Of a stretch of DNA of 64,000 nucleotides, positions 50,674 to 64,000 are shown piece by piece. Every line of letters starts with the position of its first letter. The first letter of the stretch is position 1. The position numbers and the translations under genes were made by a program. The stretch comes from Sphaerotilus natans (GTDB lineage: Bacteria; Pseudomonadota; Gammaproteobacteria; Burkholderiales; Burkholderiaceae_C). The notes under the pieces were generated by a model that ran no database searches, was not told the DNA's origin, and saw only the letters and a program-made list of their open reading frames with translations. Location: NCBI RefSeq assembly GCF_900156335.1, contig NZ_FTMZ01000004.1:124001-188000 (forward strand), read 5' to 3'.

Positions 50674-52422
50674 ATGCCCGAGGATCCGCATGCCCGCCGC
50701 GTCCGGCTGCACCAGCTGGCCGCGCTCCAGCGCAACACGCCCTTCATCGTGCTCGGCAGCCTGCTGGTGGCGGCCGCGCAGACGGGCGTGCTGGCCGGCG
50801 TCGTGCCCCACGCGTGGCTGGGCGTCTGGCTGGCCCTGCTCGCGCTGCACTCGGCGCTGCGCCTGCTGCTGTGGCGCCACGCCGCCCGGCGCCAGGACTG
50901 GCCGACCCAGGCCGAGTCGCTGCTGCGGCGACACACCGCGATCTCGCTGAGCTCCGGCCTGCTGTGGGCCGGCGGTGCGCTGGTCTTCCTGCCGCATGGC
51001 CGGATCGAGCACCACCTGCTGGTGATCTTCATGCTGGCGGGCATGGTGTCGAGCTCGCTGCACTCGCAGACCATCCACCTGCCCGCCTTCATGGCCTTCT
51101 TCGTGCCCTGCGCGATCGGCGCCGTCAGCGGCAGCCTCTGGCTGGGCGGCTCGCTCTATCAGGCGGTGGCGCTGTCCGTGTTCGCCTACTCGCTGCTGAC
51201 GATCCGCTTCGCGCGCACGCTCAACGGCAAGCTGGTCGAGTCGCTGCGGGCCCGCTTCGAGATCGCCATGCTGGCCGAGCGCCTGCGCGAGCAGAAAGAG
51301 GCCGCCGAGCAGGCCAATCTGGCCAAGTCGCGCTTCCTGGCCGCCGCCAGCCACGATCTGCGCCAGCCGGTGCACACGCTGTCGCTGCTGGTGGGCACAC
51401 TGCGGCAGGAGACGCTGCCGACGCCGGCGCGCCCGATCGTCGAGCACATCGGCGAGGCGGTGCGCACGCTGGGCACGCTGTTCTCGTCGCTGCTGGATAT
51501 CTCGCGCCTGGACGCCGGCGTGGTGGAAGTCCGGCCGCATGCCGTAGCGCTGCGCCCGCTGCTGCGGCGGCTGGCCGAGGAGGCCCGGCCGCTGGCCCAG
51601 GCCAAGGGCCTGGATCTGCGCCTGCACGCCCCCGAGCTCACGGTGCGGACCGACCCCGTTCTGCTCGAGCGCATCGTGCGCAACCTGCTGTCGAACGCCG
51701 TCCGCTACACCGAGCGGGGTCGCGTCGTGCTGGGCGGGCGCCGGCGGGGCGCACACATCGAAGTGCAGGTCATCGACACCGGCCTCGGCATGAGCGAGGA
51801 GGAGCAGCGCCGCTGCTTCCAGGAGTTCGTCCAGCTTCAGGCGCCGTCCGCGGAGCGGCAGGGCATCGGGCTGGGCCTAGCCATCGTGCAGCGCCTGGCA
51901 AGGCTGCTCGACCATCCGATCCAGATGCGCTCGCGGCCCGGCCACGGCACGGCCATCGGCGTCGTGCTGCCGATGACGGCGCCCGACCCGCGGCCCGAAC
52001 CCGCAGAAGCGCCACCTGTGCCCCCGCCCGCTCCCGGCACCGCCGGCCGGCGCGTGCTGGTGCTCGACGACGACCCGTCGATCCTGGCCGCGCTGGGCCT
52101 GCTGCTGGCGCGCTGGGGCTGGCAGCCGGTCCTAGCCGGCACGCTGGACGCCCTGCGGGCGGCCGCCACCCGCGACCCGGACCTGCCCGCCCTGATCATC
52201 TCCGACCTCGGCCTGGAACACGGCGCCGGTGGCCTGGAGGCCATCGAGGCGCTGCGGGAGGAATTCAACACCGACCTGCCCGCCCTGCTGATCACCGGCA
52301 ACACCGCGCCCGAGCGCCTGCGCGAGGCCCGCGCCGCCGGTCACCAGCTGCTGCACAAGCCGGTCGATCCCGATCTGCTGAAGGCCACGATCGCCCGCCT
52401 GGCCGGGCCCGGCACGCCCTGA
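50674..52422 (+). CDS. Hybrid sensor histidine kinase with C-terminal receiver
   Basis: A 582-aa protein. About six hydrophobic segments occupy residues 22-180 (including ISLSSGLLWAGGALVFLP and HHLLVIFMLAGMVSSSL), with little outside the membrane. The HisKA box SHDLRQPVHTLSLL has its phosphoacceptor at His227, and the HATPase has NLLSNAVRYTERG and DTGLGMSEEE. After a proline-rich linker, a receiver domain carries its phosphoacceptor at Asp511 (IISDLGLEHG). It has no DNA-binding output, so phosphate must go elsewhere; the convergent LuxR-type regulator 15 bp away is the natural candidate. Confidence 0.9.
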   Translation: MPEDPHARRVRLHQLAALQRNTPFIVLGSLLVAAAQTGVLAGVVPHAWLGVWLALLALHSALRLLLWRHAARRQDWPTQAESLLRRHTAISLSSGLLWAGGALVFLPHGRIEHHLLVIFMLAGMVSSSLHSQTIHLPAFMAFFVPCAIGAVSGSLWLGGSLYQAVALSVFAYSLLTIRFARTLNGKLVESLRARFEIAMLAERLREQKEAAEQANLAKSRFLAAASHDLRQPVHTLSLLVGTLRQETLPTPARPIVEHIGEAVRTLGTLFSSLLDISRLDAGVVEVRPHAVALRPLLRRLAEEARPLAQAKGLDLRLHAPELTVRTDPVLLERIVRNLLSNAVRYTERGRVVLGGRRRGAHIEVQVIDTGLGMSEEEQRRCFQEFVQLQAPSAERQGIGLGLAIVQRLARLLDHPIQMRSRPGHGTAIGVVLPMTAPDPRPEPAEAPPVPPPAPGTAGRRVLVLDDDPSILAALGLLLARWGWQPVLAGTLDALRAAATRDPDLPALIISDLGLEHGAGGLEAIEALREEFNTDLPALLITGNTAPERLREARAAGHQLLHKPVDPDLLKATIARLAGPGTP

Positions 52423-52437
52423 CCACCGCCGCCGGCC

Positions 52438-53085
52438 CTACAGGAGCGCCGCGCCCCATCCGGCGCCACCGCGTGCGGCGATCACCGCCTGGGTCCGGTT
52501 CGTCACGCCCAGGACCTTGAAGATCGCCCCGACGTGGACCTTGACGGTCTTCTCGGTCAGCGACAGCTCCTGCGCGATGCTCTTGTTGGGCAGGCCACGG
52601 CACATCAGCGACATGACCTCCTGCTGCCGCAGCGTCAGGCTGCAGGGTGACGCCGCCCGGGAGGCCTGACCCGGAACGACGGCCGCCCCGCTCGGCGTCC
52701 CCAGCGTCGGCACGCAGGGCCGCCCGCCCATCACCTCGCCGAGGGCCGACTTCATCTCCTGAGGATCGGCCGACTTCGAGATGAAGCCGCAGGCCCCCGC
52801 CGACAGGCTTCGCCACACGTCGTCCTGCCGGTCCGAGGCCGACAGCACCACCGACCGCAGCCCGGGACGGCGCTCGCGCAGCCGCGTGACCGTCTCCAGC
52901 CCGCCCATGCCGCGCATGTCGAGATCGACCAGAGCGAGAGCCAGATCGTCATGCCGCTCGACCAGATCCAGCGCCTCGAGGCCGCTGGCCGCCTCCAGCA
53001 CGTCCGTCGCGGCCGCATGACCCCGCAGGAACAAGACCATGCCCTGCCGCCACATCGGGTGGTCATCCACAAGCAGAAACTTCAT
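52438..53085 (-). CDS. LuxR/NarL-type response regulator
   Basis: A 215-aa regulator. The receiver (about 1-120) has DDHP, the phosphoacceptor aspartate in ALVDLDMRGMGG and the lysine in FISKSADP. The helix-turn-helix (about 145-205) reads LTLRQQEVMSLMCRGLPNKSIA then LTEKTVKVHVGAIFKVLGV. It is convergent with the hybrid kinase and divergent from the duplicated-domain gene, so it could control the latter's promoter. That link is inferred only from position. Confidence 0.9.
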   Translation of the reverse strand: MKFLLVDDHPMWRQGMVLFLRGHAAATDVLEAASGLEALDLVERHDDLALALVDLDMRGMGGLETVTRLRERRPGLRSVVLSASDRQDDVWRSLSAGACGFISKSADPQEMKSALGEVMGGRPCVPTLGTPSGAAVVPGQASRAASPCSLTLRQQEVMSLMCRGLPNKSIAQELSLTEKTVKVHVGAIFKVLGVTNRTQAVIAARGGAGWGAALL

Positions 53086-53466
53086 CGGACAGCGTGGTAA
53101 CGGGAATCAGATGATTTGATCACTTCAGGGCATGGGTGCCTAGGACCGGATCGGTCGGAGCCCCTGCTGTCCCAACAGATCTCACGGATCCCCCCTGCCC
53201 AAGGGGCAGCCCCTGGCGCACCGACCCGAGACCGCATGAATTCGCACACGCTCGCCGGGACCAAGGTCCCAGCCCTGGCCCGAACCTACGACCAAAGCCT
53301 CATTGGCAACCCCTTCCAGATCCGGAAGAATCAATTCATCGACGACATCGACGACAAAAATCATTTCAGTGGAATCCGGAAACCACATCAGTCCGGGGCG
53401 GAACCGAAAAGCCAGACGAGTAGGAAAACATCTTTCAATTTTCTTGTCTTATCAAAGGGAGCTACC
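53086..53466. promoter_or_regulatory. Divergent promoter region with A+T-rich leader
   Basis: A 381-bp gap between the LuxR-type regulator and the duplicated-domain gene. From about 53300 it is much richer in A and T than the rest of the window. The 8-mer ATCCGGAA occurs twice, near 53319 and 53373, a possible regulator site. An ATG at 53236 is in frame with the downstream gene and no stop intervenes. Its first 60 codons have GC-rich third positions, but the last 25 do not, and the good ribosome-binding site lies just before 53467. I therefore treat it as leader, not gene, with some doubt. Confidence 0.5.
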
Positions 53467-53961
53467 ATGAGCATCAATGTCAACGCCAAGACCGAGATCA
53501 AGTCGATCACGACCCTCATCGCCGCGCTGAATGACTACAAGACGAAGAACTGGGGTATCGGCTTGACGGGAAATACCCTCGTCCCCGACAGTTTCCTGGC
53601 GTTCTTCACGAATCGCGAGCTGCCCTTCACCTATTATGTCCGCTGCAAGGACGTGAGCCTCGGCGACGCCAGCGCCTATGACAAGAACATCAATGTCCTG
53701 AATTCCTATACCAACAAGGTCAAGGCCAACGAAAAGGCGCTGGTCAATGCCACGATCGCCGTCCTCAACGAATATAAGAGCAAGACTTGGGCGATCGGCC
53801 TGAATGGCGACACGCTGCAGCCTGACAATCTCCTGCCGTTCTTCGCGACGCGCGAGCTGCCGTTCGAGTTCTTCGTGCGCAAGCCGAGCCTGTCCCTCGG
53901 CGAATCGACGGCCTACGACAAGAACGTCGCGACCCTGACCAAGTATCTGGCCAGCCTCTGA
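53467..53961 (+). CDS. Tandem-duplicated domain protein of unknown family
   Basis: A 164-aa protein, not recognised. It consists of two copies of one unit of about 65 residues, exactly 79 residues apart with no gaps: residues 17-81 and 96-160 share 36 of 65 positions. The shared pattern is LNxYKxKxWxIGLxG, TLxPD, LxFF, RELPF, VR, SLG, AYDKN and a final Tyr. There is no signal peptide, transmembrane segment or cysteine pair (one Cys at 60). AGGGAG lies before ATG 53467, making this the most likely start. Codon use is less GC-rich than in its neighbours, which may mean recent acquisition or high expression. Confidence 0.8.
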   Translation: MSINVNAKTEIKSITTLIAALNDYKTKNWGIGLTGNTLVPDSFLAFFTNRELPFTYYVRCKDVSLGDASAYDKNINVLNSYTNKVKANEKALVNATIAVLNEYKSKTWAIGLNGDTLQPDNLLPFFATRELPFEFFVRKPSLSLGESTAYDKNVATLTKYLASL

Positions 53962-53992
53962 TCGACGGGCGCCCGGGAAGGCCGAACGGCCT

Positions 53993-54928
53993 TCACCGCA
54001 GCGTGCGCTCCACCCAGTCCACCACCGCCTGGGGCGAGCCGAAGTCCTCGACCGAGCGCACCGGAATGTGCGGATGGCGCGCCTGCCACATCTTCGCCAG
54101 CGTGCGCCCGGGGCCGACCTCCAGCACGCAGCGCGCGCCGCGCTCGGCCACGCTGTCCAGGCAGACGTCCCAGCGCACCGGCGCGGCGATCTGCGCGGCC
54201 AGCCCGCGCAGCACGCCGGCCCGGTCGCGCCGCGCCGCGCCATCGGCGTTGCCGACCAGCCAGGTGCGCGGCGCCAGCAGCCCGGCCGCGGCCAGATCCT
54301 CGGCGAAGGCGGTCGCCGCCGGCGCCATCCAGGGCGTGTGCGAGGCGATGCGCACCGCCAGCCGGGTGATGCGCACGCCCGCCCCTTGCGATTCCAGCTC
54401 GGCCTGAGCGGCGTCCAGCGCCTCGGCCGGGCCGCCGACGATCGCGCTGTCGGGCGCGATGCGGATCGCCAGCGCCAGGCCGTGGCGGGCGCACAGCGCC
54501 TCGCGCCGCGCCTCGTCCAGCGCGGAGAGCGCCAGCAGCCCCGAGGCACGCCCCGGCAGCGTGAGCGCCGCCGCCTGCGACATGCGCTCGGCGCGCTGCG
54601 CGGCCAGCGTCAGCGCGGTGGCGGCGTCGCACAGGCCGGCGGCGCTGGCCGCGGCCAGCTCGCCCACGCTGTAGCCGGCGATCACGCCCGGCGCCGGCAG
54701 CCCCGGCGCCAGCGCCGCCCAGCACGCCAGCGAGAGGCCGGTCAGCAGCGGCTGGGCGAAGCGGTTGTCGCTGGCGCGCTCGGCGTCGGCCAGCACCGCG
54801 CGCCAGTCGGGCCCGATCCGCGCGACCATCGCCGCCAGCACCGGCGCGCAGGCGGGCGTGCGCTCCAGCCACGGCAGCAGATCCGGGTGCTGCGTGCCCT
54901 GGCCGGGAAACAGCAGTGCCAGCGTCAC
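53993..54928 (-). CDS. mdcH: Malonate decarboxylase subunit epsilon (malonyl-CoA:ACP transacylase)
   Basis: A 311-aa FabD-like transacylase that loads malonyl onto the decarboxylase acyl carrier subunit. FPGQGTQ (residues 7-13), the nucleophile serine in AGYSVGELAAA (about 86), and the histidine in IASHTPWM (about 194) are present. ARCVLEVGPGRTLAKM is the C-terminal family block. It is the last gene of the mdc operon and overlaps the mdcB stop by 4 bp. Confidence 0.93.
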   Translation of the reverse strand: MTLALLFPGQGTQHPDLLPWLERTPACAPVLAAMVARIGPDWRAVLADAERASDNRFAQPLLTGLSLACWAALAPGLPAPGVIAGYSVGELAAASAAGLCDAATALTLAAQRAERMSQAAALTLPGRASGLLALSALDEARREALCARHGLALAIRIAPDSAIVGGPAEALDAAQAELESQGAGVRITRLAVRIASHTPWMAPAATAFAEDLAAAGLLAPRTWLVGNADGAARRDRAGVLRGLAAQIAAPVRWDVCLDSVAERGARCVLEVGPGRTLAKMWQARHPHIPVRSVEDFGSPQAVVDWVERTLR

Positions 54929-55797
54929 CGGCTCACCCGGTGCAGCCAGCAGGCGGCGGCCAGCATGTCGGCCGCGCCGCCGGGCGACAGGCGCCGCGCG
55001 ACGAAGTCGCGGTGCAGCGCCCGAGCGCGCTCGATCGCCTCGGGCGCGGCCGCGCCGCCGGCGGCGAGAAAGTCGCGCGCGCGCTGCTGCACGTCACGCA
55101 GCCCGGCCAGCCCGGCGCGGTGGGCCAGATTGGTGTCGTCGAGCACCGCCATCGCTGCGAACAGCGCCTGCAGCCGCGCGCGCTCGGCGCCCAGGCCGCG
55201 CGCCAGGGCGGCCTCCAGCGCCGGATGCACCACCTCGAACAGCGCGGGGAAGGCCTCGGCCGCCTCGATGCCGGCGCCGCGCAGGCCGTGGCGGCGCGCG
55301 GCGATCGCGCCGTTCGACAACGCGCCCGCCGCCCGCTCGGCCCGTGCCGCCAGCGCCTCGCCCCAGCCCTGGCGCAGCGACTCGCGCACGCCTTCAGGCC
55401 GCAGCGCCTGCCCGCGCGCGCGCAGCCGCCCCGCCGCCGCGCACAGCAGGCCCAGCGTGAAGATCGCGCCGCGGTGGGTGTTGATGCCGCCGGTGGCGCG
55501 CAGCATGCGGGCCTCGGCCGCCAGGCCCTCCTGCTCCAGCGCGGCGAAGGGTGCCCCGGCCGCGCCCAGCCGGGCAAAGGCCGGAAAGGCCCGGCGCAGC
55601 GAGAACAGGCTGCGCAGGAAGGTCGAGGCGTCCATGTCGGTGTGGCTGCCGCTGTCGACGAAGGACACCAGCCCCGGCTTGGGGGCCAGCGCCAGCTCGT
55701 CGTGCAGGGCGACGGTGGCGGCGCGGCCCAGGATCAGCGCGGCGTCGGAGCGCTCGACCGCGGCGGCAAGCAGCGGCAGGCAAGGCAGCGCGCTCAT
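54925..55797 (-). CDS. mdcB: Triphosphoribosyl-dephospho-CoA synthase
   Basis: A 290-aa enzyme making the precursor of the 2'-(5''-phosphoribosyl)-3'-dephospho-CoA prosthetic group of malonate decarboxylase. The family marks are LAPKPGLVSFVDSGSHTDMD (about 37-56), GGINTHRGAIFTLGLL (about 102-117) and DDTNLAHRAG. ATG 55797 overlaps the mdcG stop by 4 bp. In Pseudomonas and Acinetobacter mdcB follows mdcA; here it sits between mdcG and mdcH. Confidence 0.92.
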   Translation of the reverse strand: MSALPCLPLLAAAVERSDAALILGRAATVALHDELALAPKPGLVSFVDSGSHTDMDASTFLRSLFSLRRAFPAFARLGAAGAPFAALEQEGLAAEARMLRATGGINTHRGAIFTLGLLCAAAGRLRARGQALRPEGVRESLRQGWGEALAARAERAAGALSNGAIAARRHGLRGAGIEAAEAFPALFEVVHPALEAALARGLGAERARLQALFAAMAVLDDTNLAHRAGLAGLRDVQQRARDFLAAGGAAAPEAIERARALHRDFVARRLSPGGAADMLAAACWLHRVSR

Positions 55798-56474
55798 GCC
55801 CGCTCCCTGGCCAGGCGATGCTCGGGCCGCTCCAGCGCCACGCCGTGCAGCCGCTTGACCAGCACCTCGCGGGTGCGCCCGGCGCGCCAGGCGGCCCATT
55901 CGCGCCAGGCCACCGCCGAGCCGTCCGGCCAGGTCAGCTCGCCGTCCAGGCGCGGCAGCGCCGAGCGCTCCTGCGCCGCCAGCGCCGTCACCACCGCATC
56001 GGCCTGGGCGGCCTCGCGCACCGGCAGGCACAGGTCGAGATCGGAACCGGGGCGCAGGCAGTCCTGGCCGCTGACCAGCTGCCAGCCGTGGCTGCCATGC
56101 ACCCGCGCCGGGCACGACACGGCCGCCAGGTCCGCGAGCAGCTGCTGCATCGGCGCGCGGGCCGCCGCCGGCAGCAGGCGCATCACCTGGCTCGCTGCGG
56201 GAAACTCGTCCAGCCAGGCCACCGCGGTGGCCGGCACCTGCAGCGCCAGGCGCAGGCGCTGCCAGGCGGTAGGCGCGGGCAGGCCCAGCGCCAGCATCGC
56301 GGGCGCCGAGGAGGCGGCCCGCCCGTCGGGCTGACGGGTCACGACCAGCGGCAGGTCGTTCTGGGCCCAGAAGGTCAGGCAGGACCGCGCGAGCGGCACC
56401 TGGGGCTGGTCGAGCACGCCGGCCCAGCCTGAGGCGCTCAGGTGGACGAGCTGATGGCGGTGCAGCGGGGGCAT
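55794..56474 (-). CDS. mdcG: Malonate decarboxylase holo-[ACP] synthase
   Basis: A 226-aa nucleotidyltransferase that attaches the phosphoribosyl-dephospho-CoA group to the acyl carrier subunit MdcC. The catalytic motif GSDLDL is at about residues 142-147, preceded by VHGSHGWQLVSG. The opening HRHQLVHLS is typical of MdcG. It overlaps mdcB by 4 bp and lies 13 bp after mdcE. Confidence 0.92.
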   Translation of the reverse strand: MPPLHRHQLVHLSASGWAGVLDQPQVPLARSCLTFWAQNDLPLVVTRQPDGRAASSAPAMLALGLPAPTAWQRLRLALQVPATAVAWLDEFPAASQVMRLLPAAARAPMQQLLADLAAVSCPARVHGSHGWQLVSGQDCLRPGSDLDLCLPVREAAQADAVVTALAAQERSALPRLDGELTWPDGSAVAWREWAAWRAGRTREVLVKRLHGVALERPEHRLARERA

Positions 56475-56487
56475 GGCGGCCGCGCCT

Positions 56488-57198
56488 TCACGCCGCGTCC
56501 AGCACGCGCTGGATCACCGATGCGGCCAGGCGCCGGCCGCCGCGCGCCCGGCCGTCGTCGGCGCGCACGTCGGTGCGGGGCGCCTCGGCCAGGGCGGCGC
56601 GCAGCGCGGCGGCCAGGTCGCCCGTCCACAGGCGGCGCACGCCGCCCATCGCCACGTAGTTGTCCACGCCGGGCGCGAACACCGGGTTGTCGCGCGACAG
56701 CGCCTCCAGCCGCTCGGGCGCCAGCTTGGTGATGCGCGCCATCGCCGGCAGGCGCATCACCCGGATCTCGGCGCCGGGCAGCGCGTCGCACGCGTCCGCG
56801 ATCAGGCCCGAAGTGATGAAGCCGCCCGACAGCGCCTGGTCATAGACCAGCCCCAGCACCCGGTGGCCCTGGCGACGCGCCAGGTCGATGGCCTGGCCAA
56901 GATGGGCCATGGCGCGGTGGATGCCCAGCAGCTCGTCGCGGCGGCGCAGCTGCTGGCCCTGGGTGTCGATCAGCAGCAGGATGGGTCGTCCGGGGTGATC
57001 GCGCACGGTGTCGAGCACCACGCGGGCCTGGCGCAGCGCCAGGTCCACGCCGATGGGCGCGTGGTTCGTGGTGCCGACCACCGTCAGCGGCGCGCCGTCG
57101 AAGACGACCGTGCCGTGCAGGAAGTCGCCGTCCTGGGTGATGCCGTGCGGCGCGGGGCCGGTGCCGAACAGCGCCTCGGCCAATGCGGTCCAGTTCAT
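56488..57198 (-). CDS. mdcE: Malonate decarboxylase subunit gamma
   Basis: A 236-aa carboxyltransferase-fold subunit that forms the decarboxylase active site with MdcD. It keeps ILLLIDTQGQQLRRRDELLGI, the oxyanion-type GLVYDQALSGGFITSGLIAD and the block FAPGVDNYVAMGGV. ATG 57198 gives MNWTALAEALFG. The gene lies 14 bp past mdcD. Confidence 0.92.
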   Translation of the reverse strand: MNWTALAEALFGTGPAPHGITQDGDFLHGTVVFDGAPLTVVGTTNHAPIGVDLALRQARVVLDTVRDHPGRPILLLIDTQGQQLRRRDELLGIHRAMAHLGQAIDLARRQGHRVLGLVYDQALSGGFITSGLIADACDALPGAEIRVMRLPAMARITKLAPERLEALSRDNPVFAPGVDNYVAMGGVRRLWTGDLAAALRAALAEAPRTDVRADDGRARGGRRLAASVIQRVLDAA

Positions 57199-57212
57199 GG
57201 GAGGGGCCTTCT

Positions 57213-58103
57213 TCAGACGGTGCGCAGGCCGCGCACCTCGTCCACGTTCAGATCGGACACCCGCGCGGCCTCGGCCACACCCAGGCGGCGCCACAGCGTC
57301 ACCGCGTCGTCCTCGCCCGCGGGCACGGGCGTGGCCTCCAGCAGCGCCTGGCGGCGGCGCAGCAGCGCATGCTCGGCCTCCAGCACGGCCAGCGTCACCG
57401 GCGCGCGGGCATCCAGCGCGGCCAGGGCGGCGGCGCGGAAATCGGCCACCGTGTCCTCGACCAGCGCGTCGCAGTCGCCCGTGAGCCAGCGGTGCTTGCC
57501 GCCGGTGGTGCGCCAGACCAGCGCGCGGTCGCGGGCGTCGAACTCCTCGACGCCGTGCGAGGACTCGATCACCTCGGGGCCGGACATCGCCAGCCGGCCG
57601 ATGTCGCTCATCACGACATGGTCGGTGCAGCGCGCGACCATGCCCATGCCGCCGAAGCAGCCGTTGGCGCTGCCCACCAGCACCACCACCGGGATGCCGG
57701 CGGCGCGCACGTCCAGCACCGCGCGCATCACCTCCGACACCGCGATCAGGCCGGCGTTGGCCTCGTGCAGCCGCACGCCGCCCGAGTCGGCCAGCAGCAG
57801 CACCGCGTCGGGGCGCTCGCGCAGCGCGCGCCGCAGCAGGCCGACGAGCTTGGCGCCATGCACCTCGCCCACGCCGCCGCCCAGGAAGGCGCCCTCCTGC
57901 GCCGCCAGGAACACCGGCCGCCCGCCCAGCGTGGCGCGGCCGATGACGACGCCGTCATCGAAGGCCGAGGGCACGCCGAGCTGCGCCAGGTGCGGGCTGG
58001 TCAGGCGCTCGGCCGGCGGCAGCCACTCGTGGAAGCTGCCAGCGTCGGCCAGGTGGGCGACGCGCTCGCGCGCGGTGCATTCCGAATAGCTGATCGCGCT
58101 CAT
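57213..58103 (-). CDS. mdcD: Malonate decarboxylase subunit beta
   Basis: A 296-aa carboxyltransferase-type subunit that releases CO2 from the malonyl-S-ACP intermediate. VVIGRATLGGRPVFLAAQEG (about 52-71), LLADSGGVRLHEANAG (about 102-117) and GCFGGMGMVA are visible. ATG 58103 overlaps the mdcC stop by 4 bp. Confidence 0.93.
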   Translation of the reverse strand: MSAISYSECTARERVAHLADAGSFHEWLPPAERLTSPHLAQLGVPSAFDDGVVIGRATLGGRPVFLAAQEGAFLGGGVGEVHGAKLVGLLRRALRERPDAVLLLADSGGVRLHEANAGLIAVSEVMRAVLDVRAAGIPVVVLVGSANGCFGGMGMVARCTDHVVMSDIGRLAMSGPEVIESSHGVEEFDARDRALVWRTTGGKHRWLTGDCDALVEDTVADFRAAALAALDARAPVTLAVLEAEHALLRRRQALLEATPVPAGEDDAVTLWRRLGVAEAARVSDLNVDEVRGLRTV

Positions 58104-58435
58104 GGCCGGCCTCCCGCGGACAGCTCGGCCACCGCCTGGTCGAGCCGCAGGCTCACCACCGCGGGGGTCGCGCCCATGTCGTGGATGGACACGCGCACGC
58201 CGGCCAGGCCGTGGCGGGCATGGAAGTCGTCCATCACCGCCTGCCAGATGGGGCGAAAGCCATGCGCCGAGGTCTCGACCTGCACCCGGCAGGCCGGCGG
58301 CTCGGCCGGCTCCAGCAGCACCTCCAGGTGGCCCGAGCCGACCACGCCGACCAGCACGGGGGCGAAGGGGCCGACCGGATGGCGCCCCTCGTACGAGAAG
58401 TCCAGGGTTTCGATCCCTGCGGGGGGGGTGTTCAT
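58100..58435 (-). CDS. mdcC: Malonate decarboxylase acyl carrier protein (delta)
   Basis: A 111-aa carrier whose serine bears the phosphoribosyl-dephospho-CoA arm. The attachment serine is in GVVGSGHLEVLLEP (about residue 34). ETSAHGFRPIWQAVMDDF follows, as in the family. It sits between mdcA (52 bp upstream) and mdcD (4-bp overlap). Confidence 0.93.
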   Translation of the reverse strand: MNTPPAGIETLDFSYEGRHPVGPFAPVLVGVVGSGHLEVLLEPAEPPACRVQVETSAHGFRPIWQAVMDDFHARHGLAGVRVSIHDMGATPAVVSLRLDQAVAELSAGGRP

Positions 58436-58487
58436 CGTCGTGTTCTCCGATCTCTCGCCGCCACCAGGCCGTCACCAGGCGGCCGGT

Positions 58488-60161
58488 TCACCAGTTGCGG
58501 AAGCGCTGGGGCGGGCGGTACAGACCGCCCGAGGCGCGCACCAGGTCGCGCATGCTGCGCGCGGCCAGCAGGTTGCGGGTGGCGTCGCGCGGATCGATGC
58601 CCAGGTCGGCCGGACGCTGGATCACGCCGCGGTCGCGCAGGTTCTCGACCAGGCGCCGGTCGCGGCCCAGGCCCACCGGCGTGTAGCCGGCCACGCCGCG
58701 GATGGCCTGCTCGCGCTCCTCGTCGCTGCGGCACAGCAGCAGATTGGCGATGCCCTCCTCGGTGAGGATGTGGGTCACGTCGTCGCCGTAGATCATGATC
58801 GGCGGCAGCGGCATGCGCGCCTGCTCGGCCAGCGTCCAGGCGTCGAGCCGCTCGACGAAGGCCGGCTGCATGTGCTCGCGGAAGGTCTCCACCATCTGCA
58901 CCACCAGCTTCTGGCCGCGCGGCGTGCCCGCGGCGCCGTGGCGGCCGCGGCGCGACTCCTCGCCGGCCTGCAGCCAGGTCGGGCTGGCGTGGCGTCGCCC
59001 GCGCGCGTCGGCGCCCATGTTCGGCGCGCCGCCGAAGCCGGCGATGCGCCCGAGCGTGGCGGTCGAGCTGTTGCCGTCGAGGTCCATCTGCAGCGTCGAG
59101 CCGATGAACAGGTCGCAGGCGTAGTGGCCCGCGGCCTGGCTGAAGGCGCGGTTGCTGCGCAGGCTGCCGTCCGGCCCGGTGAAGAACACGTCCGAGCGGG
59201 CGCGGATGTAGTCCTCCATGCCCAGCTCCGAGCCGAAGGAATGGATCGACTCGACCCAGCCGGCCTCGATGGCCGGGATCAGCGCCGGGTGCGGGTTCAG
59301 CGCCCAGTGCCGGCAGATCTTGCCCTTCAGGCCCAGCGACTCGCCGTAGGTGGGCAGCAGCAGCTCGATGGCGGCGGTGTCGAAGCCGATGCCGTGGTTC
59401 AGGCGCTGCACGCCGTAGCGGGCGTAGATGCCCTTGATGGCCATCATCGCCATCAGCACCTGGATCTCGCTGATCTGCGCCGGGTCGCGGGTGAAGAGCG
59501 GCTCGATGAAGTTCGGCCGCGGCGCCGGAACCACGAAGCTGACCCAGTCGGCGGGAATGTCCACGCGCGGCAGCGCGCCGTCCACCACCTCGTTGACCTG
59601 CGCGATGACGATGCCGCCCGAGAAGGCAGTGGCCTCGACGATGGCCGGGGTGTCTTCGGTGTTCGGGCCGGTGTAGAGGTTGCCGTGCCGGTCGGCCGCC
59701 TGCGCCGCCACCAGCGAGATCTTCGGCGTGAGATCGACGAAGTAGCGCGAGAACAGCTCCAGGTAGGTGTGGATGGCGCCGATCTCGATGCGCCCCTGCG
59801 ACACCAGCCGCGCCAGCCGCGCGCCCTGCGGCCCGGAGAAGCTGAAGTCCAGCCGCGAGGCCAGGCCCAGCTCGAACAGGTCGAGGTGCTCGGGCAGCGC
59901 CAGCACCGACTGCACCATGTGCAGGTGGTGCACCCGCTCCGGGTCGAGGCTGGCCAGCGCCTGGGCCAGGAAGTCGGCCTGCTTCTGGTTGTTGCCTTCG
60001 AGGCAGACGCGGTCGTGCGGCTCGATCACCGCGTGCAACAGGTCGGTCACGGCGCCGGTGGCGACATGACGGCCGCTCAGTCGCGGGCCGAGCGCCTCGG
60101 CGGCGCGGGCCAGGCGGGCTTGGCGGTCCTGCTGGCGCTGGTTCCAGGGGCGGTGATCCAT
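58488..60161 (-). CDS. mdcA: Malonate decarboxylase subunit alpha (acetyl-S-ACP:malonate transferase)
   Basis: A 557-aa CoA-transferase-like subunit that swaps malonyl for acetyl on the carrier. It begins with DHRPWNQRQQDRQARL; SLVAAQAADRHGNLYTGPNTEDTPAIVEATAF (read here in short pieces) holds the transferase region, and GIGFDTAAIELLLPTYGE and FFTGPDGSLRSNRAFSQAAG follow. Length and order match MdcA. The start lies 4 bp after the receptor gene's... neighbouring stop at 60165, so the two are probably one transcript. Confidence 0.93.
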   Translation of the reverse strand: MDHRPWNQRQQDRQARLARAAEALGPRLSGRHVATGAVTDLLHAVIEPHDRVCLEGNNQKQADFLAQALASLDPERVHHLHMVQSVLALPEHLDLFELGLASRLDFSFSGPQGARLARLVSQGRIEIGAIHTYLELFSRYFVDLTPKISLVAAQAADRHGNLYTGPNTEDTPAIVEATAFSGGIVIAQVNEVVDGALPRVDIPADWVSFVVPAPRPNFIEPLFTRDPAQISEIQVLMAMMAIKGIYARYGVQRLNHGIGFDTAAIELLLPTYGESLGLKGKICRHWALNPHPALIPAIEAGWVESIHSFGSELGMEDYIRARSDVFFTGPDGSLRSNRAFSQAAGHYACDLFIGSTLQMDLDGNSSTATLGRIAGFGGAPNMGADARGRRHASPTWLQAGEESRRGRHGAAGTPRGQKLVVQMVETFREHMQPAFVERLDAWTLAEQARMPLPPIMIYGDDVTHILTEEGIANLLLCRSDEEREQAIRGVAGYTPVGLGRDRRLVENLRDRGVIQRPADLGIDPRDATRNLLAARSMRDLVRASGGLYRPPQRFRNW

Positions 60162-60164
60162 CGC

Positions 60165-61160
60165 TCAGTCGGCCTTGATGTTGCCCGCCTTGACCACCTC
60201 GGCCCAGCGCTTGGTCTCGGCCGCCACAAAGTCGCCGAAGTCCTTGCCGGCCAGCGTCGGCGTCTCGGCGCCAAGGTTGTTCCACGCCGCCTTCAGCTCG
60301 GGGCTGGCCAGCACCGTCCTCAGCTCGGCGCCCATCTTGTCGACGATCTCCCGGGGCGTGCCCTTCGGCGCCCACAGGCCGTACCAGGTCGCGACCTTGT
60401 AGGTCGGCGCGCCCGCCTCGGCCGCGGTCGGGATGTCGGGAAAGCCGGGGGCGCGCTTGTCGCCGGCCACCGCGATGGCGCGCAGCCGCCCGCCCTTGAG
60501 ATGCGTGGCCGATGAGCCCAGGCCGTCGAACATCATGTCCACCTGCCCGCCCATCAGGTCCTGCAGCGCCGGGCCGGCGCCCCGGTACGGGATGTGGGTG
60601 ATGAAGGTGCCGGTCTGCATCTTGAACAGCTCGCCGGCCAGGTGGTGCGAGGAGCCGTTGCCCGCCGAACCGTAGGTCAGCCGCCCCGGCTTGGAGCGGA
60701 TGAAGGCCAGCAGCTCCTTCAGGTCCTTGACCGGCACCTTCTGCGGGTTGACGACGATGACCTGCGGCACGCTGGCCACCAGCGCGACCGGCACGAAGTC
60801 GTTCGCCAGGTGGTAGTCGAGCTTCGGGTAGATCGACGGCGCGATGGTGTGGTGCACGCCGCCCATGAACCAGGTCTGGCCGTCGGGCGCGGCCTTGGCC
60901 GCCACGCCCGCGCCCAGGTTGCCGCCCGCGCCGCCCTTGTTGTCGATGATGACCTGATGGCCGAGCTGCTTCGTGAGCTGCGCCGACAGCGGCCGCGCGA
61001 AGGCATCGGTGCCGCCGCCGGCCGGAAAGGGCACGACCAGCGTGATCGGCCTGTTCGGCCAGGCGGCCTGGGCGAGCGCCGGCAGCGGCAGGGCGGCGGC
61101 GGCCGCCGCTGCGGCGCACAGCGCCAGCACCGGGCGGCGCGACACGAGGGAAAGGGGCAT
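60165..61160 (-). CDS. Tripartite tricarboxylate transporter receptor (Bug family)
   Basis: A 331-aa periplasmic solute receptor of the TctC/Bug family. It has a Sec signal peptide (VSRRPVLALCAAAAAAAALPLPALAQA, cleaved after about residue 31, shown here only in outline) and starts the mature part with WPNRPITLVVPFPAGGGTDAFAR, the family's first strand and loop. ATG 61160 follows CAGGAGA. It is the first gene of the mdc operon, so malonate is the natural guess for its ligand. No tctA/tctB membrane genes or the usual malonate carriers (mdcLM, mdcF, madLM) are in the window. Confidence 0.87.
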   Translation of the reverse strand: MPLSLVSRRPVLALCAAAAAAAALPLPALAQAAWPNRPITLVVPFPAGGGTDAFARPLSAQLTKQLGHQVIIDNKGGAGGNLGAGVAAKAAPDGQTWFMGGVHHTIAPSIYPKLDYHLANDFVPVALVASVPQVIVVNPQKVPVKDLKELLAFIRSKPGRLTYGSAGNGSSHHLAGELFKMQTGTFITHIPYRGAGPALQDLMGGQVDMMFDGLGSSATHLKGGRLRAIAVAGDKRAPGFPDIPTAAEAGAPTYKVATWYGLWAPKGTPREIVDKMGAELRTVLASPELKAAWNNLGAETPTLAGKDFGDFVAAETKRWAEVVKAGNIKAD

Positions 61161-61348
61161 GGCTTGTCTCCTGGTGGGCAGCGCGCGCTGCCTCGGCTTG
61201 GTATCTGCGGTATCTGCGATCCATGACCCGGACGGGCCGGGCTGCACGCATCGTCGGACATCAGGCACGATCGCGCCATTCGCCATCGATTGAGGCCGCC
61301 TTCGACCTGCGTTGAGGGCGCGCCGCCCGGCGCTGGAGCCCTTGCCCC
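61161..61348. promoter_or_regulatory. Divergent promoter region of mdcR and the mdc operon
   Basis: A 188-bp gap between start codons. GGTATCTGC occurs twice in tandem (61200-61208 and 61209-61217), 40-57 bp from the receptor start. LysR-type regulators usually bind in such a shared region, but no site of theirs could be picked out with confidence. Confidence 0.45.
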
Positions 61349-62269
61349 GTGATCAACCTGAACCGTTTCGACCTTGTCTCGCTGCGCCTGTTCGTCGCGG
61401 TGGTGGACGCCGGCAGCCTGACGGCCGGCGCCGACCGCTTCGGCATCTCGCTGGCAGCGGCCAGCAAGCGCATCAACGAGCTGGAGCAGCACTGCGGCCT
61501 GACGCTGCTGCAGCGCGGCCAGCGCGGCGTGAGCACCACCGCCAGCGGCCAGCTGCTGCACCGCCACGCCATCGAGGTGATCGCCCGGCTGGAGCAGCTG
61601 GCGCTGGCGGTCGAGGACGTGCACGGCGGCGCCGACGCGCACCTGCGGCTGTGGGCCAACCCCTCGGCCTTCGGCGGCTTCCTGCCCCGGCTGCTGTCGG
61701 CCTATGCGGCGCGCCACCCCCAGGTGCGCATCGACCTGGAGGACGCGCTCAGCGAGGACGGCGTGCGCGCGGTGCAGAAGGGCCTGGCCGAGCTGGCGGT
61801 CATCGGCGACAACGTGCCCTGCGAGGGCCTGGAGACGCGGCTGTGCAACATCGACCGGCTGGTGCTGCTGGTGCCCCGGGCGCATGCGCTGGCGCAGGGC
61901 GCGAGCGTGCCGGTGGCGGCCGCCTTCGCGCACGACCTGGTCACGCTGCCGCGCAGCGCCTCGCTGACCCGCAAGGTCATGGCCGCGGCCGAGACGGCGG
62001 GCCACACGCCGCGCATTCGCGTGCAGGTGCGCAGCTTCGACTCGATGTGCCGCATGGTCGCCTGCGGCCTGGGCCTGGCCATCCTGCCCGAGGCCGCGGC
62101 GGCGCTGTACGCGCAGGCCCTCGACCTGAAGGTGCAGCCGCTGCACGGCATGGCGGTCGAGCGCCAGCTGCTGCTGGCGATGCGCCGCCGCGCCGACCTC
62201 TCGCCGTCGGCCGAGGCGCTGGTGGCGATGATCGAGGCGGCGCTGGGCGAGAGCACACGGTCGCCATGA
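61349..62269 (+). CDS. mdcR: LysR-type regulator of malonate use
   Basis: A 306-aa LysR-family regulator. The N-terminal winged helix reads FDLVSLRLFVAVVDAGSLTAGADRFGIS (outlined) with SLAAASKRINELEQ as recognition region; the effector domain (about 92-300) contains LRLWANPSAFGGFLP and MVACGLGLAILPEAAA. It starts at GTG 61349 and is divergent from the receptor-mdc operon, so it probably activates that operon in response to malonate or malonyl-CoA. The symbol rests on context, since LysR proteins look alike. Confidence 0.82.
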   Translation: MINLNRFDLVSLRLFVAVVDAGSLTAGADRFGISLAAASKRINELEQHCGLTLLQRGQRGVSTTASGQLLHRHAIEVIARLEQLALAVEDVHGGADAHLRLWANPSAFGGFLPRLLSAYAARHPQVRIDLEDALSEDGVRAVQKGLAELAVIGDNVPCEGLETRLCNIDRLVLLVPRAHALAQGASVPVAAAFAHDLVTLPRSASLTRKVMAAAETAGHTPRIRVQVRSFDSMCRMVACGLGLAILPEAAAALYAQALDLKVQPLHGMAVERQLLLAMRRRADLSPSAEALVAMIEAALGESTRSP

Positions 62270-62290
62270 GCCGATCTGGCCCCGGCAGAT

Positions 62291-62370
62291 CGTCATGCCC
62301 GCGAAGGCGGGCACCCACGACGAGCCAAAGCCGGCGGCAGGCGTGGGTCCTCGCCTTCGCGAGGATGACG
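62291..62370. repeat. REPIN-like inverted pair of palindromes
   Basis: Two arms of 28 bp, 62291-62318 and 62343-62370, are inverted copies matching at 24 of 28 positions, with 24 bp between. Each arm is itself CGTCAT plus a hairpin (GCCCGC-GAAG-GCGGGC and TCCTCGC-CTTC-GCGAGGA). The four differences between arms are two compensating pairs, so each hairpin stays fully paired. This is the layout of a REP doublet (REPIN). It lies between the convergent mdcR and phosphofructokinase genes. A related single copy is at 28121. Confidence 0.8.
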
Positions 62371-62387
62371 GCAGCGCGGCCAAGGCC

Positions 62388-63449
62388 TCAGCCGGCCTCT
62401 CCCAGACTCACCCCGATCTCCCGCGCGCAGACCAGCAGCGGGTGATCCAGCGGCACGCGGCGGTTCTGACCCGCCACCGAGGCCAGCGGCACGCTGGCGA
62501 GCTGACCGCCCTGGAGCGTGACCATCCGCCCGAACTGGCCCCGGCGCAGCAGGTGCGCGGCCTCGTTGCCGTACTGCGTCGCCAGCACCCGGTCGAAGGG
62601 CGTGGGGCTGCCGCCGCGCTGCACATGGCCGAGCACGGTGGCGCGCACCTCGGCCTGGACCAGCGGCTGCAGCCGCTCGCGCAGAAGGTGCGCCACGCCG
62701 CCCAGCCGGATCGGGTCGGGGCTGCCCGCCACCGTGCGCTCGACCGTCAGCGCGCCGCCGACCGGCTTGGCGCCCTCGGCGATGCAGATCAGCGTGGCGC
62801 GGCGGCGCGCATGGCGCTCGCGGCAGACGGCGGCGATGCGCTCGACATCGAAGTCGATCTCCGGCAGCAGGATCACGTCGGCCGCGCCGGCCAGGCCCGC
62901 CTCCAGCGCGATCCAGCCGGCGTAGCGGCCCATCGTCTCGACGATCATCACCCGGCCGTGGCTCTGGCCGGTGGTCTGGACGCGCTCGAGCGCCTCGGTC
63001 ACGGTGGCCACCGCGGTGTCGAAGCCGAAGCTGCGCTCGCAGCCGGCGATGTCGTTGTCGATGGTCTTGGGCACGCCCACCATCGGCACGCCGCCAACCT
63101 CGCCGAGCCGCGCCGCCATCGTCATCGTGCCGTCGCCGCCGATGGTCACCAGCGCGTCGAGCCCGAGCTCGTGCTGGTAGGCGACGACCTCGGCCGAGAC
63201 GTCGCGGCCGCGCCAGGCAAACGGGCTGGCGGTGTTGCTGGTGCCCAGGATGGTGCCGCCGGTGGCCAGAATGCCGCTGACCTCGTCCCAGCCCAGCGGG
63301 CGCACCCGGCGCTCGATCAGGCCGAGAAAGCCGTCCTCGATGCCAATCACCTCGGCGCCGCACTGGCGGATCAGCGACTTGGTGACGGCGCGGATGACCG
63401 CGTTCAGGCCGGGGCAGTCGCCGCCGCCGGTGAGCATGCCGATGCGCAT
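62388..63449 (-). CDS. 6-phosphofructokinase (ATP or pyrophosphate dependent)
   Basis: A 353-aa phosphofructokinase phosphorylating fructose-6-phosphate. MLTGGGDCPGLNAVIRA opens the nucleotide fold; RPLGWDEVSGILATGGTILGTS and GGDGTMTMAARL (about 101-112) follow, then PKTIDNDI (about 127-134) with the catalytic aspartate, and MGRYAGWIALEAG. The donor is unclear: glycine in GGDGT fits ATP, while lysine in PKTIDND is typical of pyrophosphate enzymes. Group III enzymes of either kind share this mix. ATG 63449 is the start; a longer frame upstream reads as non-coding. Confidence 0.92.
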   Translation of the reverse strand: MRIGMLTGGGDCPGLNAVIRAVTKSLIRQCGAEVIGIEDGFLGLIERRVRPLGWDEVSGILATGGTILGTSNTASPFAWRGRDVSAEVVAYQHELGLDALVTIGGDGTMTMAARLGEVGGVPMVGVPKTIDNDIAGCERSFGFDTAVATVTEALERVQTTGQSHGRVMIVETMGRYAGWIALEAGLAGAADVILLPEIDFDVERIAAVCRERHARRRATLICIAEGAKPVGGALTVERTVAGSPDPIRLGGVAHLLRERLQPLVQAEVRATVLGHVQRGGSPTPFDRVLATQYGNEAAHLLRRGQFGRMVTLQGGQLASVPLASVAGQNRRVPLDHPLLVCAREIGVSLGEAG

Positions 63450-63573
63450 CAGAGGTACCTCTCGGTTTTCATTTCGGTCAAGCCACAGCCCCGGCAGATG
63501 CGGGGCCCGGAAGCTTGCCAGTCTAGGGGGACTCCGCTCGGCGGACCTTGAGCCGGATCCTAGAATCGCCGTC

Positions 63574-64000
63574 ATGCACATCCACATCCTCGGCATCTGC
63601 GGCACGTTCATGGGCGGCGTCGCGGCGCTGGCCCGCGAGGCCGGTCATCGCGTCACCGGCTGTGACGCCAACGTCTACCCGCCGATGAGCGACCAGCTGC
63701 GCGCGCTCGGCATCGACCTGATCGAGGGCTTCGCGCCCGAGCAGATGGCGCTGAAGCCCGACCTGTTCGTGGTCGGCAATGTCGTCAGCCGCGGCAACCC
63801 GCTGATGGAGGCCATCCTGGACGCCGGCCTGCCCTATGTCAGCGGACCGCAGTGGCTGGCCGAGAACGTGCTGGCCGGGCGGCATGTGCTGGCGGTGGCC
63901 GGCACGCACGGCAAGACGACCACCACCTCGATGCTGGCGTGGATCCTCGAGGCCGCCGGGCTGCAGCCGGGCTTCCTGGTCGGCGGCGTGCCGCAGAACT
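63574..64000 (+). CDS. mpl: UDP-N-acetylmuramate:L-Ala-gamma-D-Glu-meso-DAP ligase, N-terminal part
   Basis: The first 142 residues of a Mur-ligase-family protein that runs past the window's end. The sequence MHIHILGICGTFMGGVAALA is the Mpl N terminus (MurC-like Rossmann motif), ANVYPPMSDQL is specific to Mpl rather than MurC, and AGTHGKTTTTSMLAW is the ATP-binding P-loop. Mpl recycles cell-wall tripeptide by ligating it to UDP-MurNAc. ATG 63574 lies 124 bp from the divergent phosphofructokinase start. Confidence 0.93.
   Translation, partial: MHIHILGICGTFMGGVAALAREAGHRVTGCDANVYPPMSDQLRALGIDLIEGFAPEQMALKPDLFVVGNVVSRGNPLMEAILDAGLPYVSGPQWLAENVLAGRHVLAVAGTHGKTTTTSMLAWILEAAGLQPGFLVGGVPQN

What the first reader, a model, noticed from the sequence alone, without database searches (positions are those of the whole stretch)
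53467..53961. Unrecognised protein built from two copies of one novel domain
Two units of about 65 residues at an exact offset of 79 residues, with 36 of 65 identical positions and no gaps. The strict shared signature (WxIGLxGxTLxPD, RELPF, SLG, AYDKN) points to a compact fold with selected surfaces. I know no family with this pattern. The gene is less GC-rich than its surroundings, has a long A+T-rich leader and a strong ribosome-binding site, and stands divergent from a LuxR-type regulator that pairs with a hybrid kinase. Together this looks like a signal-controlled, possibly highly expressed product. It is the best candidate here for an undescribed system.
Basis: partly seen in the sequence, partly recalled or inferred. 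Interest (0 to 1): 0.78.

Follow-up and report, generated by a model that had tools for sequence, protein, structure and literature searches.

The report
Tandem orphan domain at gene-swap locus
This small bacterial gene encodes two copies of a domain that the protein-family libraries searched here do not recognise; relatives are scattered over distant bacteria, sometimes joined to enzymes or an immune-type sensor, and in one related genome an unrelated repeat protein takes its place behind the same regulatory RNA.

Summary
In detail: a 164-aa protein with two copies of one domain, 36 of 65 identical residues at offset 79. The domain matches no Pfam, NCBIfam, PHROGs or PADLOC family at cut-off, and its model (pLDDT 89.8) has no PDB match at E<=0.001. 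I aligned 17 intact members from Leptothrix, Rheinheimera, a gammaproteobacterial MAG, Desulfosarcina and Cyanobacteria: nine stand-alone pairs, seven at the C-terminus of a DyP-type peroxidase (six with two copies, one with one), one at the C-terminus of an nSTAND NTPase. The two-component link is a feature of the Leptothrix locus, not of the family. In a third genome of the genus the kinase/regulator flank, the RNA and the far flank are kept, but the gene between is an unrelated protein of 43-residue repeats. Elsewhere the same RNA class precedes cystatin-like genes. Best reading: a new bivalent, cytosolic ligand-binding module, delivered in Leptothrix from a regulator- and RNA-controlled site whose product gene can be exchanged. 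Binding is inferred from architecture; the ligand is unknown.

The parts
53467..53961 (+). 164-aa protein of two copies of the orphan domain
53518..53712 (+). domain copy 1, residues 18-82 (best ungapped 65-residue unit)
53755..53949 (+). domain copy 2, residues 97-161
53364..53430 (+). DUF805 RNA (Rfam RF03081, cis-regulatory), 57.8 bits against a gathering score of 51.1
   Evidence: outer pair of the first stem G-C in the 3 Leptothrix rows and A-U in the 6 other rows aligned
53456..53461 (+). ribosome-binding-site-like AGGGAG, 5 bases before the ATG
   Evidence: read
53233..53336 (+). second leader block kept in the third genome (72% identity); GACCAARG at 53259 and 53290, the only two in the window on either strand; the third genome has both, C29 one of the two; possible regulator site (inference)
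52438..53085 (-). divergent response regulator (receiver + GerE; best NCBIfam model NarL, below its cut-off)
50674..52422 (+). hybrid sensor histidine kinase (HisKA, HATPase_c, receiver; best NCBIfam model NahK/ErcS type, below its cut-off)
53987..54702 (-). downstream flank shared with the third genome (84%), within an ORF that looks to me like malonate decarboxylase mdcH (name recalled, not tested)

Best explanation
The gene encodes a member of a new family of domains of about 79 residues, used mostly as a tandem pair. I read it as a bivalent, cytosolic ligand-binding module. Alone it would act as an agglutinin-like binder; at the C-terminus of a DyP-type peroxidase it would bring the enzyme to its target; at the C-terminus of an nSTAND NTPase it sits in the seat of the sensor. 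In Leptothrix the divergent hybrid-kinase/NarL-like regulator pair would switch transcription and the DUF805 RNA leader would tune translation. The product gene is exchangeable: the same control region stands before this protein in two genomes and before an unrelated two-half repeat protein in a third. Shown: the domain, the copies, the fusions, the RNA match, the swap. Inferred: binding, control by the neighbouring kinase and regulator, and action of the RNA. Unknown: the ligand.
For: Family and architectures: 10 loci in one genome scan, two of them DyP fusions; further DyP fusions and one nSTAND1 fusion. 16 of the 17 aligned members hold two copies, 1 holds one. Model: pLDDT 89.8, pTM 0.80, no PDB match at E<=0.001. 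RNA: RF03081 in the window, C29 and the third genome. Swap: flanks 83% and 84% and RNA 82% identical to the third genome, no blastn match over the gene; in the kinase/regulator flank C29 is 92.7% identical to the third genome and 84.7% to the window, yet carries the window's gene (78% protein identity). The swapped-in protein has 43-residue repeats (97 of 210 identical at offset 43) in two halves (92 of 128 at offset 125). [quoted passage not shown]
Against: No ligand and no binding data. No sequence or fold link to any known binding domain. The nSTAND case is a single protein with a diverged second copy. The DUF805 RNA does not reach its gathering score in the other module loci tested and was not found in 12 module-carrying genomes, where only 150 of 388-1328 first-look candidates per genome were scored; so the RNA is a partner of the Leptothrix site, not of the family. 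In the window and C29 the RNA's GAGTAGG ends 42 and 40 bases before the ATG, against 22 in the third genome and about 24 before the cystatin-like genes, so its spacing here is unusual. Single-strand folding of the leaders is no better than shuffles (z 0.52 to 0.84). The fold of the swapped-in protein is unresolved (pLDDT 36.5).
Confidence: 0.42

Rival explanations
1. The module is a self-assembly or scaffolding domain: it oligomerises DyP peroxidases or STAND NTPases and, alone, forms a cytosolic multimer; it binds itself, not a foreign ligand.
For: Long helices (7-27, 69-106, 149-163) with short strands in the model; a second DyP without the module stands beside the fused one in L012 (Pfam) and, judged by sequence starts, in L052, L053 and L054; two copies are the rule.
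Against: No PF20628 match in 5 of 14 genomes searched, among them the window's own genome and C29, so the stand-alone pair needs no DyP there; exchange with an unrelated repeat protein at one locus fits a functional product better than a partner-specific scaffold.
Confidence: 0.2
2. It is one of a set of anti-predator or anti-protease effector proteins made in the cytosol, like fungal and cyanobacterial agglutinins or inhibitors (analogy recalled), and the Leptothrix locus is an exchange site for such effectors.
For: The same RNA class precedes a cystatin-like gene on a Bradyrhizobium plasmid and in 7 of 7 IMG/VR contigs found by a typed pattern (some of these contigs are near-copies of each other), and DUF805b RNA precedes a short peptide beside grasp-with-spasm genes on an Elizabethkingia plasmid. 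No strongly hydrophobic start in the window protein (hydropathy only).
Against: A DUF805b-like motif precedes many unrelated proteins in IMG/VR contigs, so the RNA says little about the type of product. No toxicity or inhibition data.
Confidence: 0.17
3. It belongs to an anti-phage or self-recognition conflict system, the module being an antigen sensor.
For: A TPR-nSTAND1-module protein in one cyanobacterium; a WD40-repeat protein next to the stand-alone gene in Fischerella, whose N-terminal part looks to me like an NTPase; patchy distribution.
Against: No PADLOC model hit for the window protein, one DyP fusion or the nSTAND fusion; among the 13 tested neighbours of the seven stand-alone loci outside Leptothrix I recognise no known defence protein.
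Confidence: 0.13
4. It is a sheath or cell-surface polysaccharide factor of filamentous bacteria, working with oxidative glycan chemistry.
For: Hosts include Leptothrix, Oscillatoria, Fischerella and Cylindrospermum (that these are filamentous is recalled); one DyP fusion tested lies beside a GlxA-like copper radical oxidase, and in Streptomyces the DyP-type DtpA is needed for GlxA maturation (PMC4736821, abstract and section 3.3 seen).
Against: No signal peptide is apparent from hydropathy, L007 being the most hydrophobic at its start; I do not know Rheinheimera and Desulfosarcina as sheath formers (recall); the window genome has no DyP match.
Confidence: 0.08

Closest known systems
OAAH agglutinins (Oscillatoria agardhii agglutinin homologues, PF17882)
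   Same: Short proteins of two (or four) tandem repeats of about 67 residues, first found in a cyanobacterium (PMC10655256, passages seen).
   Different: OAAH is a beta-barrel (same passages); this module is mainly helical in the model and PF17882 is not among the 9 families that any of 17 members matched at E<=0.1. An analogy only.
DyP-type peroxidases with DtpA/GlxA-like gene pairs
   Same: Seven of the 17 aligned members are C-terminal parts of DyP-type peroxidases; the one locus tested has a GlxA-like oxidase beside it.
   Different: DtpA is a Tat-exported peroxidase (PMC4736821, abstract); the module is an extra domain and the window protein has no peroxidase part.
STAND/nSTAND NTPases with variable C-terminal sensors
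   Same: One member sits C-terminal to an nSTAND1 domain (PF20703, 114.4 bits), where sensors sit (PMC10907252, one passage).
   Different: The window protein is stand-alone; only one such fusion was seen.
DUF805 RNA (RF03081) and DUF805b RNA (RF02914)
   Same: The leader is a member by Rfam's gathering score.

Membership tests
DUF805 RNA, RF03081 | covariance-model score at or above the gathering score of 51.1 bits, full length, upstream of a coding gene | tested here: met
   57.8 bits, model positions 1-68 of 68; ATG 42 bases after GAGTAGG
DUF805 RNA, RF03081 | regulatory activity | not testable with these tools
   none; needs a reporter assay
OAAH lectin family, PF17882 | match to the family profile | tested here: not met
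   17 members scanned, 9 families matched by any at E<=0.1, PF17882 not among them
any described protein family | profile match at cut-off in Pfam, NCBIfam, PHROGs or PADLOC | tested here: not met
   window protein: best Pfam E 0.032, 14.7 bits against a cut-off of 27; best for any of 17 members E 0.00064 to DUF2334, matched by 2 members; NCBIfam none at E<=1; PHROGs best E 0.003, no stretch passing on its own; PADLOC none at E<=0.01
known protein fold | Foldseek match in PDB at E<=0.001 | tested here: not met
   37 matches at E<=10, none at E<=0.001; viral library none at E<=0.001; the second aligner was not available and no AlphaFold DB is on hand
lectin or other binding protein | ligand binding | not testable with these tools
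   architecture only
beta-trefoil (for the swapped-in protein of the third genome) | three repeats per domain folding as a trefoil | tested here: inconclusive
   43-residue repeats in two halves, but model pLDDT 36.5 and best PDB sequence hits at E 0.52 (a lectin) and 0.63 (haemoglobin)
DyP-type peroxidase (fusion partner) | Pfam Dyp_perox_C above cut-off | tested here: met
   5 of 7 fusions: L012 41 bits, L051 32.4, and the frames of L011, L052, L054, cut-off 20; L053 and L055 judged by sequence only

The most novel reading that the evidence does not exclude
The Leptothrix site is an RNA-led exchange locus: a kinase/regulator pair and a DUF805 RNA leader form a fixed control unit behind which whole effector genes, from just after the RNA to just past the stop codon, are swapped for unrelated ones. 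The tandem domain is one such effector, with a new fold that recognises foreign or self molecules.
Probability: 0.2. Interest if true: 0.8.

Novelty: new variant of a known kind. Interest (0 to 1): 0.58.

Why it matters
A confidently modelled domain without a family in the libraries searched, carried by distant phyla and reused on a peroxidase and on an immune-type NTPase, is a concrete target for finding a new recognition fold. The swap behind a known RNA class, whose function is to my knowledge open (recalled), makes two questions testable in one small locus: what the RNA does, and what interchangeable products the control unit serves.

Tried and rejected
Rejected: lectin membership by sequence; a phage or plasmid home of the domain (no match in viral contigs, plasmids, or phages, at their sensitivities); a general two-component link; a DUF805 RNA link for the whole domain family. 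Weak hits at E 1e-5 to 1e-3 (7 of the 10 positives, 1 of the 2) are treated as chance and left out. I looked at 4 of these 8: one lies in a glycosidase-like and one in a nucleotidyltransferase-like ORF (names by eye); for two my script printed no frame although one search lists long open frames there, so they remain unread, as do the other four. Four of the 14 positives are fragments (short open frames, some with stops), read as decaying copies and left out of the 17. The model of the swapped-in protein failed, and no relative of it was found in plasmids or viral contigs. The paper that I recall as the source of the DUF805 RNA is not held. Literature, listings only unless said otherwise: DUF805 with 'RNA motif' 0 papers; DUF805 alone 8 papers, none opened; 'candidate structured RNAs' or DUF805, 225 papers, 20 listed; DyP fusions in cyanobacteria 1 paper; dye-decolorizing peroxidase with galactose oxidase in cyanobacteria 0 papers; further listings.

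Full report
What is there. The ORF at 53467-53961 encodes 164 residues in two copies of one domain: 36 of 65 identical without gaps at offset 79; over the whole overlap 38 are identical, against at most 21 at any offset from 40 to 109 in 5000 shuffles. It is a real gene: the differences from its Leptothrix sp. C29 orthologue fall 25/21/47 by codon position over 164 codons. The window lies in G000. The hit in G001, a genome of the same genus, and the C29 contig share contig length and identity, so I take G001 for C29, and C29's record title is the ground for the name Leptothrix.

Family. No match at cut-off in Pfam, NCBIfam, PHROGs or PADLOC, and none in PDB by sequence or profile. One genome scan returned 10 relatives: Leptothrix C29 (78%), Desulfosarcina sp., Rheinheimera sp., a gammaproteobacterial MAG, Fischerella, Cylindrospermum and four Oscillatoria. 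Genome searches show how patchy it is: 2 of 60 relatives, both among the 13 genomes of the genus; 1 of 321 of the class and 1 of 299 of the phylum, each time the window's own genome; 1 of 197 of the Rheinheimera order, the query genome; 2 of 198 of the Desulfosarcina phylum, the query genome and one weak hit; 10 of 386 Cyanobacteria, 3 of them strong; 14 of 340 of the order of Oscillatoria PCC 10802, 4 of them fragments.

Architectures. The alignment of 17 intact members (duplicates, weak hits and fragments left out) holds 9 stand-alone pairs; 7 C-terminal parts of DyP-type peroxidases, 6 with two copies and 1 with one; and 1 pair, its second copy diverged, at the C-terminus of a TPR-nSTAND1 protein. 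Dyp_perox_C is above its cut-off in 5 of the 7 (L012, L051, the frames of L011, L052 and L054); L053 and L055 are judged by their near-identical sequence. One neighbour of a fusion (in L053) matches the galactose-oxidase early-set domain above its cut-off and copper radical oxidase GlxA below its cut-off (186 of 800 bits); in L012, L051, L052 and L054 I judge a similar neighbour by its first residues only, and I see none in the stretches of L011 and L055. In Streptomyces DtpA, a DyP-type peroxidase, is needed for GlxA maturation and uses H2O2 made by GlxA (PMC4736821, abstract and section 3.3). The window genome and C29 have no PF20628 match. A tree of the single copies puts Leptothrix first copies together and second copies together, the latter with the Desulfosarcina second copy (support 0.945), which suggests that the doubling predates the split of these sequences; most deeper branches are weak.

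Neighbours. Of the 14 nearest large ORFs beside the seven stand-alone loci outside Leptothrix, 13 were tested with Pfam; only the Cylindrospermum hybrid kinase is a two-component protein. Both Oscillatoria stand-alone loci, L006 and L009, have a PEP-mutase-like gene downstream.

Structure. AlphaFold2 on the 17-row alignment: pLDDT 89.8, pTM 0.80; helices 7-27, 42-49, 69-106, 122-128, 149-163 and two short strands per copy. Foldseek finds nothing at E<=0.001 in PDB or the viral library. A missing match does not prove a new fold: the second aligner and AlphaFold DB were not available.

The leader. Rfam places DUF805 RNA (RF03081) at 53364-53430, 57.8 bits, above the gathering score of 51.1 and the only Rfam match at gathering threshold in the 64-kb window. 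C29 has it at 51.2 bits, just over the score, and a third genome of the genus, G007, at 58.9: 3 of 40 relatives, 3 of the 13 genomes of the genus (in most genomes only 95 first-look candidates were scored). In 122 genomes of the family, under stricter filters, only the window's own was found. Across nine copies aligned the outer pair of the first stem is G-C in the three Leptothrix rows and A-U in the six others, a compensatory change; minimum-energy folding of three leaders is no better than shuffles.

The swap. Between G007 and the window, the kinase/regulator flank (window 52099-53089, 83%), the RNA (53367-53427, 82%), another leader block (53233-53336, 72%) and the downstream flank (53987-54702, 84%) align, and nothing between RNA and downstream flank does. 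In its place G007 has a 253-residue protein of 43-residue repeats in two halves, without a Pfam family above cut-off. In the kinase/regulator flank C29 is 92.7% identical to G007 and 84.7% to the window, yet C29 has the window's gene: gene content and flank disagree, as expected of replacement. C29 shows no match to the window's downstream flank, so the right border rests on one pair of genomes.

What else the RNA precedes. On Bradyrhizobium plasmid pNK6d the RNA (62.2 bits) precedes an 89-residue protein like cystatins (PDB 6i1m, E 0.0011; no Pfam match above cut-off). Seven IMG/VR contigs found with a typed pattern all pass the RF03081 gathering score, and in 7 of 7 a cystatin-like ORF follows (several are near-copies, and the pattern favours close relatives of the window's RNA). 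DUF805b RNA (37.9 bits, cut-off 35.6) precedes a short peptide beside grasp-with-spasm genes on an Elizabethkingia plasmid. A typed DUF805b-like pattern gave 58 IMG/VR stretches: 52 of 58 have an ATG 16-25 bases after the motif, against 3, 6 and 1 of 58 in three control intervals further on; in 40 of 58 my script chose that start, with 34 different protein beginnings (no covariance scan of these). The spacing is 22 bases in G007 but 42 in the window and 40 in C29.

Reading. A domain that is used alone in pairs, as an add-on to an enzyme and in the sensor seat of a STAND NTPase (PMC10907252, one passage), and that is exchanged with another two-half repeat protein behind the same control region, behaves like a ligand-binding module. 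That is inference. It works like an agglutinin or sensor; it is not shown to be a member of any such family. The control circuit (kinase, regulator, RNA) is inferred from conserved position.

Noticed in passing
L085-L142 (IMG/VR contigs): A DUF805b-like motif is followed by an ATG 16-25 bases later in 52 of 58 stretches, against 1-6 of 58 in control intervals, before many unrelated proteins; it looks like a general translation-start leader rather than the switch of one pathway.
   Followed up: partly
L076:3998-4354 and L078-L084: DUF805 RNA directly before cystatin-like genes on a Bradyrhizobium plasmid and in 7 of 7 IMG/VR contigs found.
   Followed up: partly
L047-L050 (unnamed cyanobacterial genomes): Fragments of the tandem domain in four genomes; the neighbouring genes look the same in L047, L048 and L049, and those of L050 resemble the neighbours of the intact gene in L006 and L009.
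   Followed up: partly
L012:2-9481 and similar loci: Gene row with a myo-inosose-2 dehydratase, a SnoaL-like protein, a sugar-epimerase-like protein, an oxidase like the GlxA-like one of L053 (by eye) and two DyP peroxidases; may be an oxidative biosynthetic or glycan cluster.
   Followed up: partly
window 53993-63611: The downstream ORFs read like a malonate decarboxylase cluster followed by a phosphofructokinase (names recalled, not tested); C29 shows no match to the window's downstream flank.
   Followed up: no
L006:11932-12009: Group II intron match in the Oscillatoria princeps locus.
   Followed up: no
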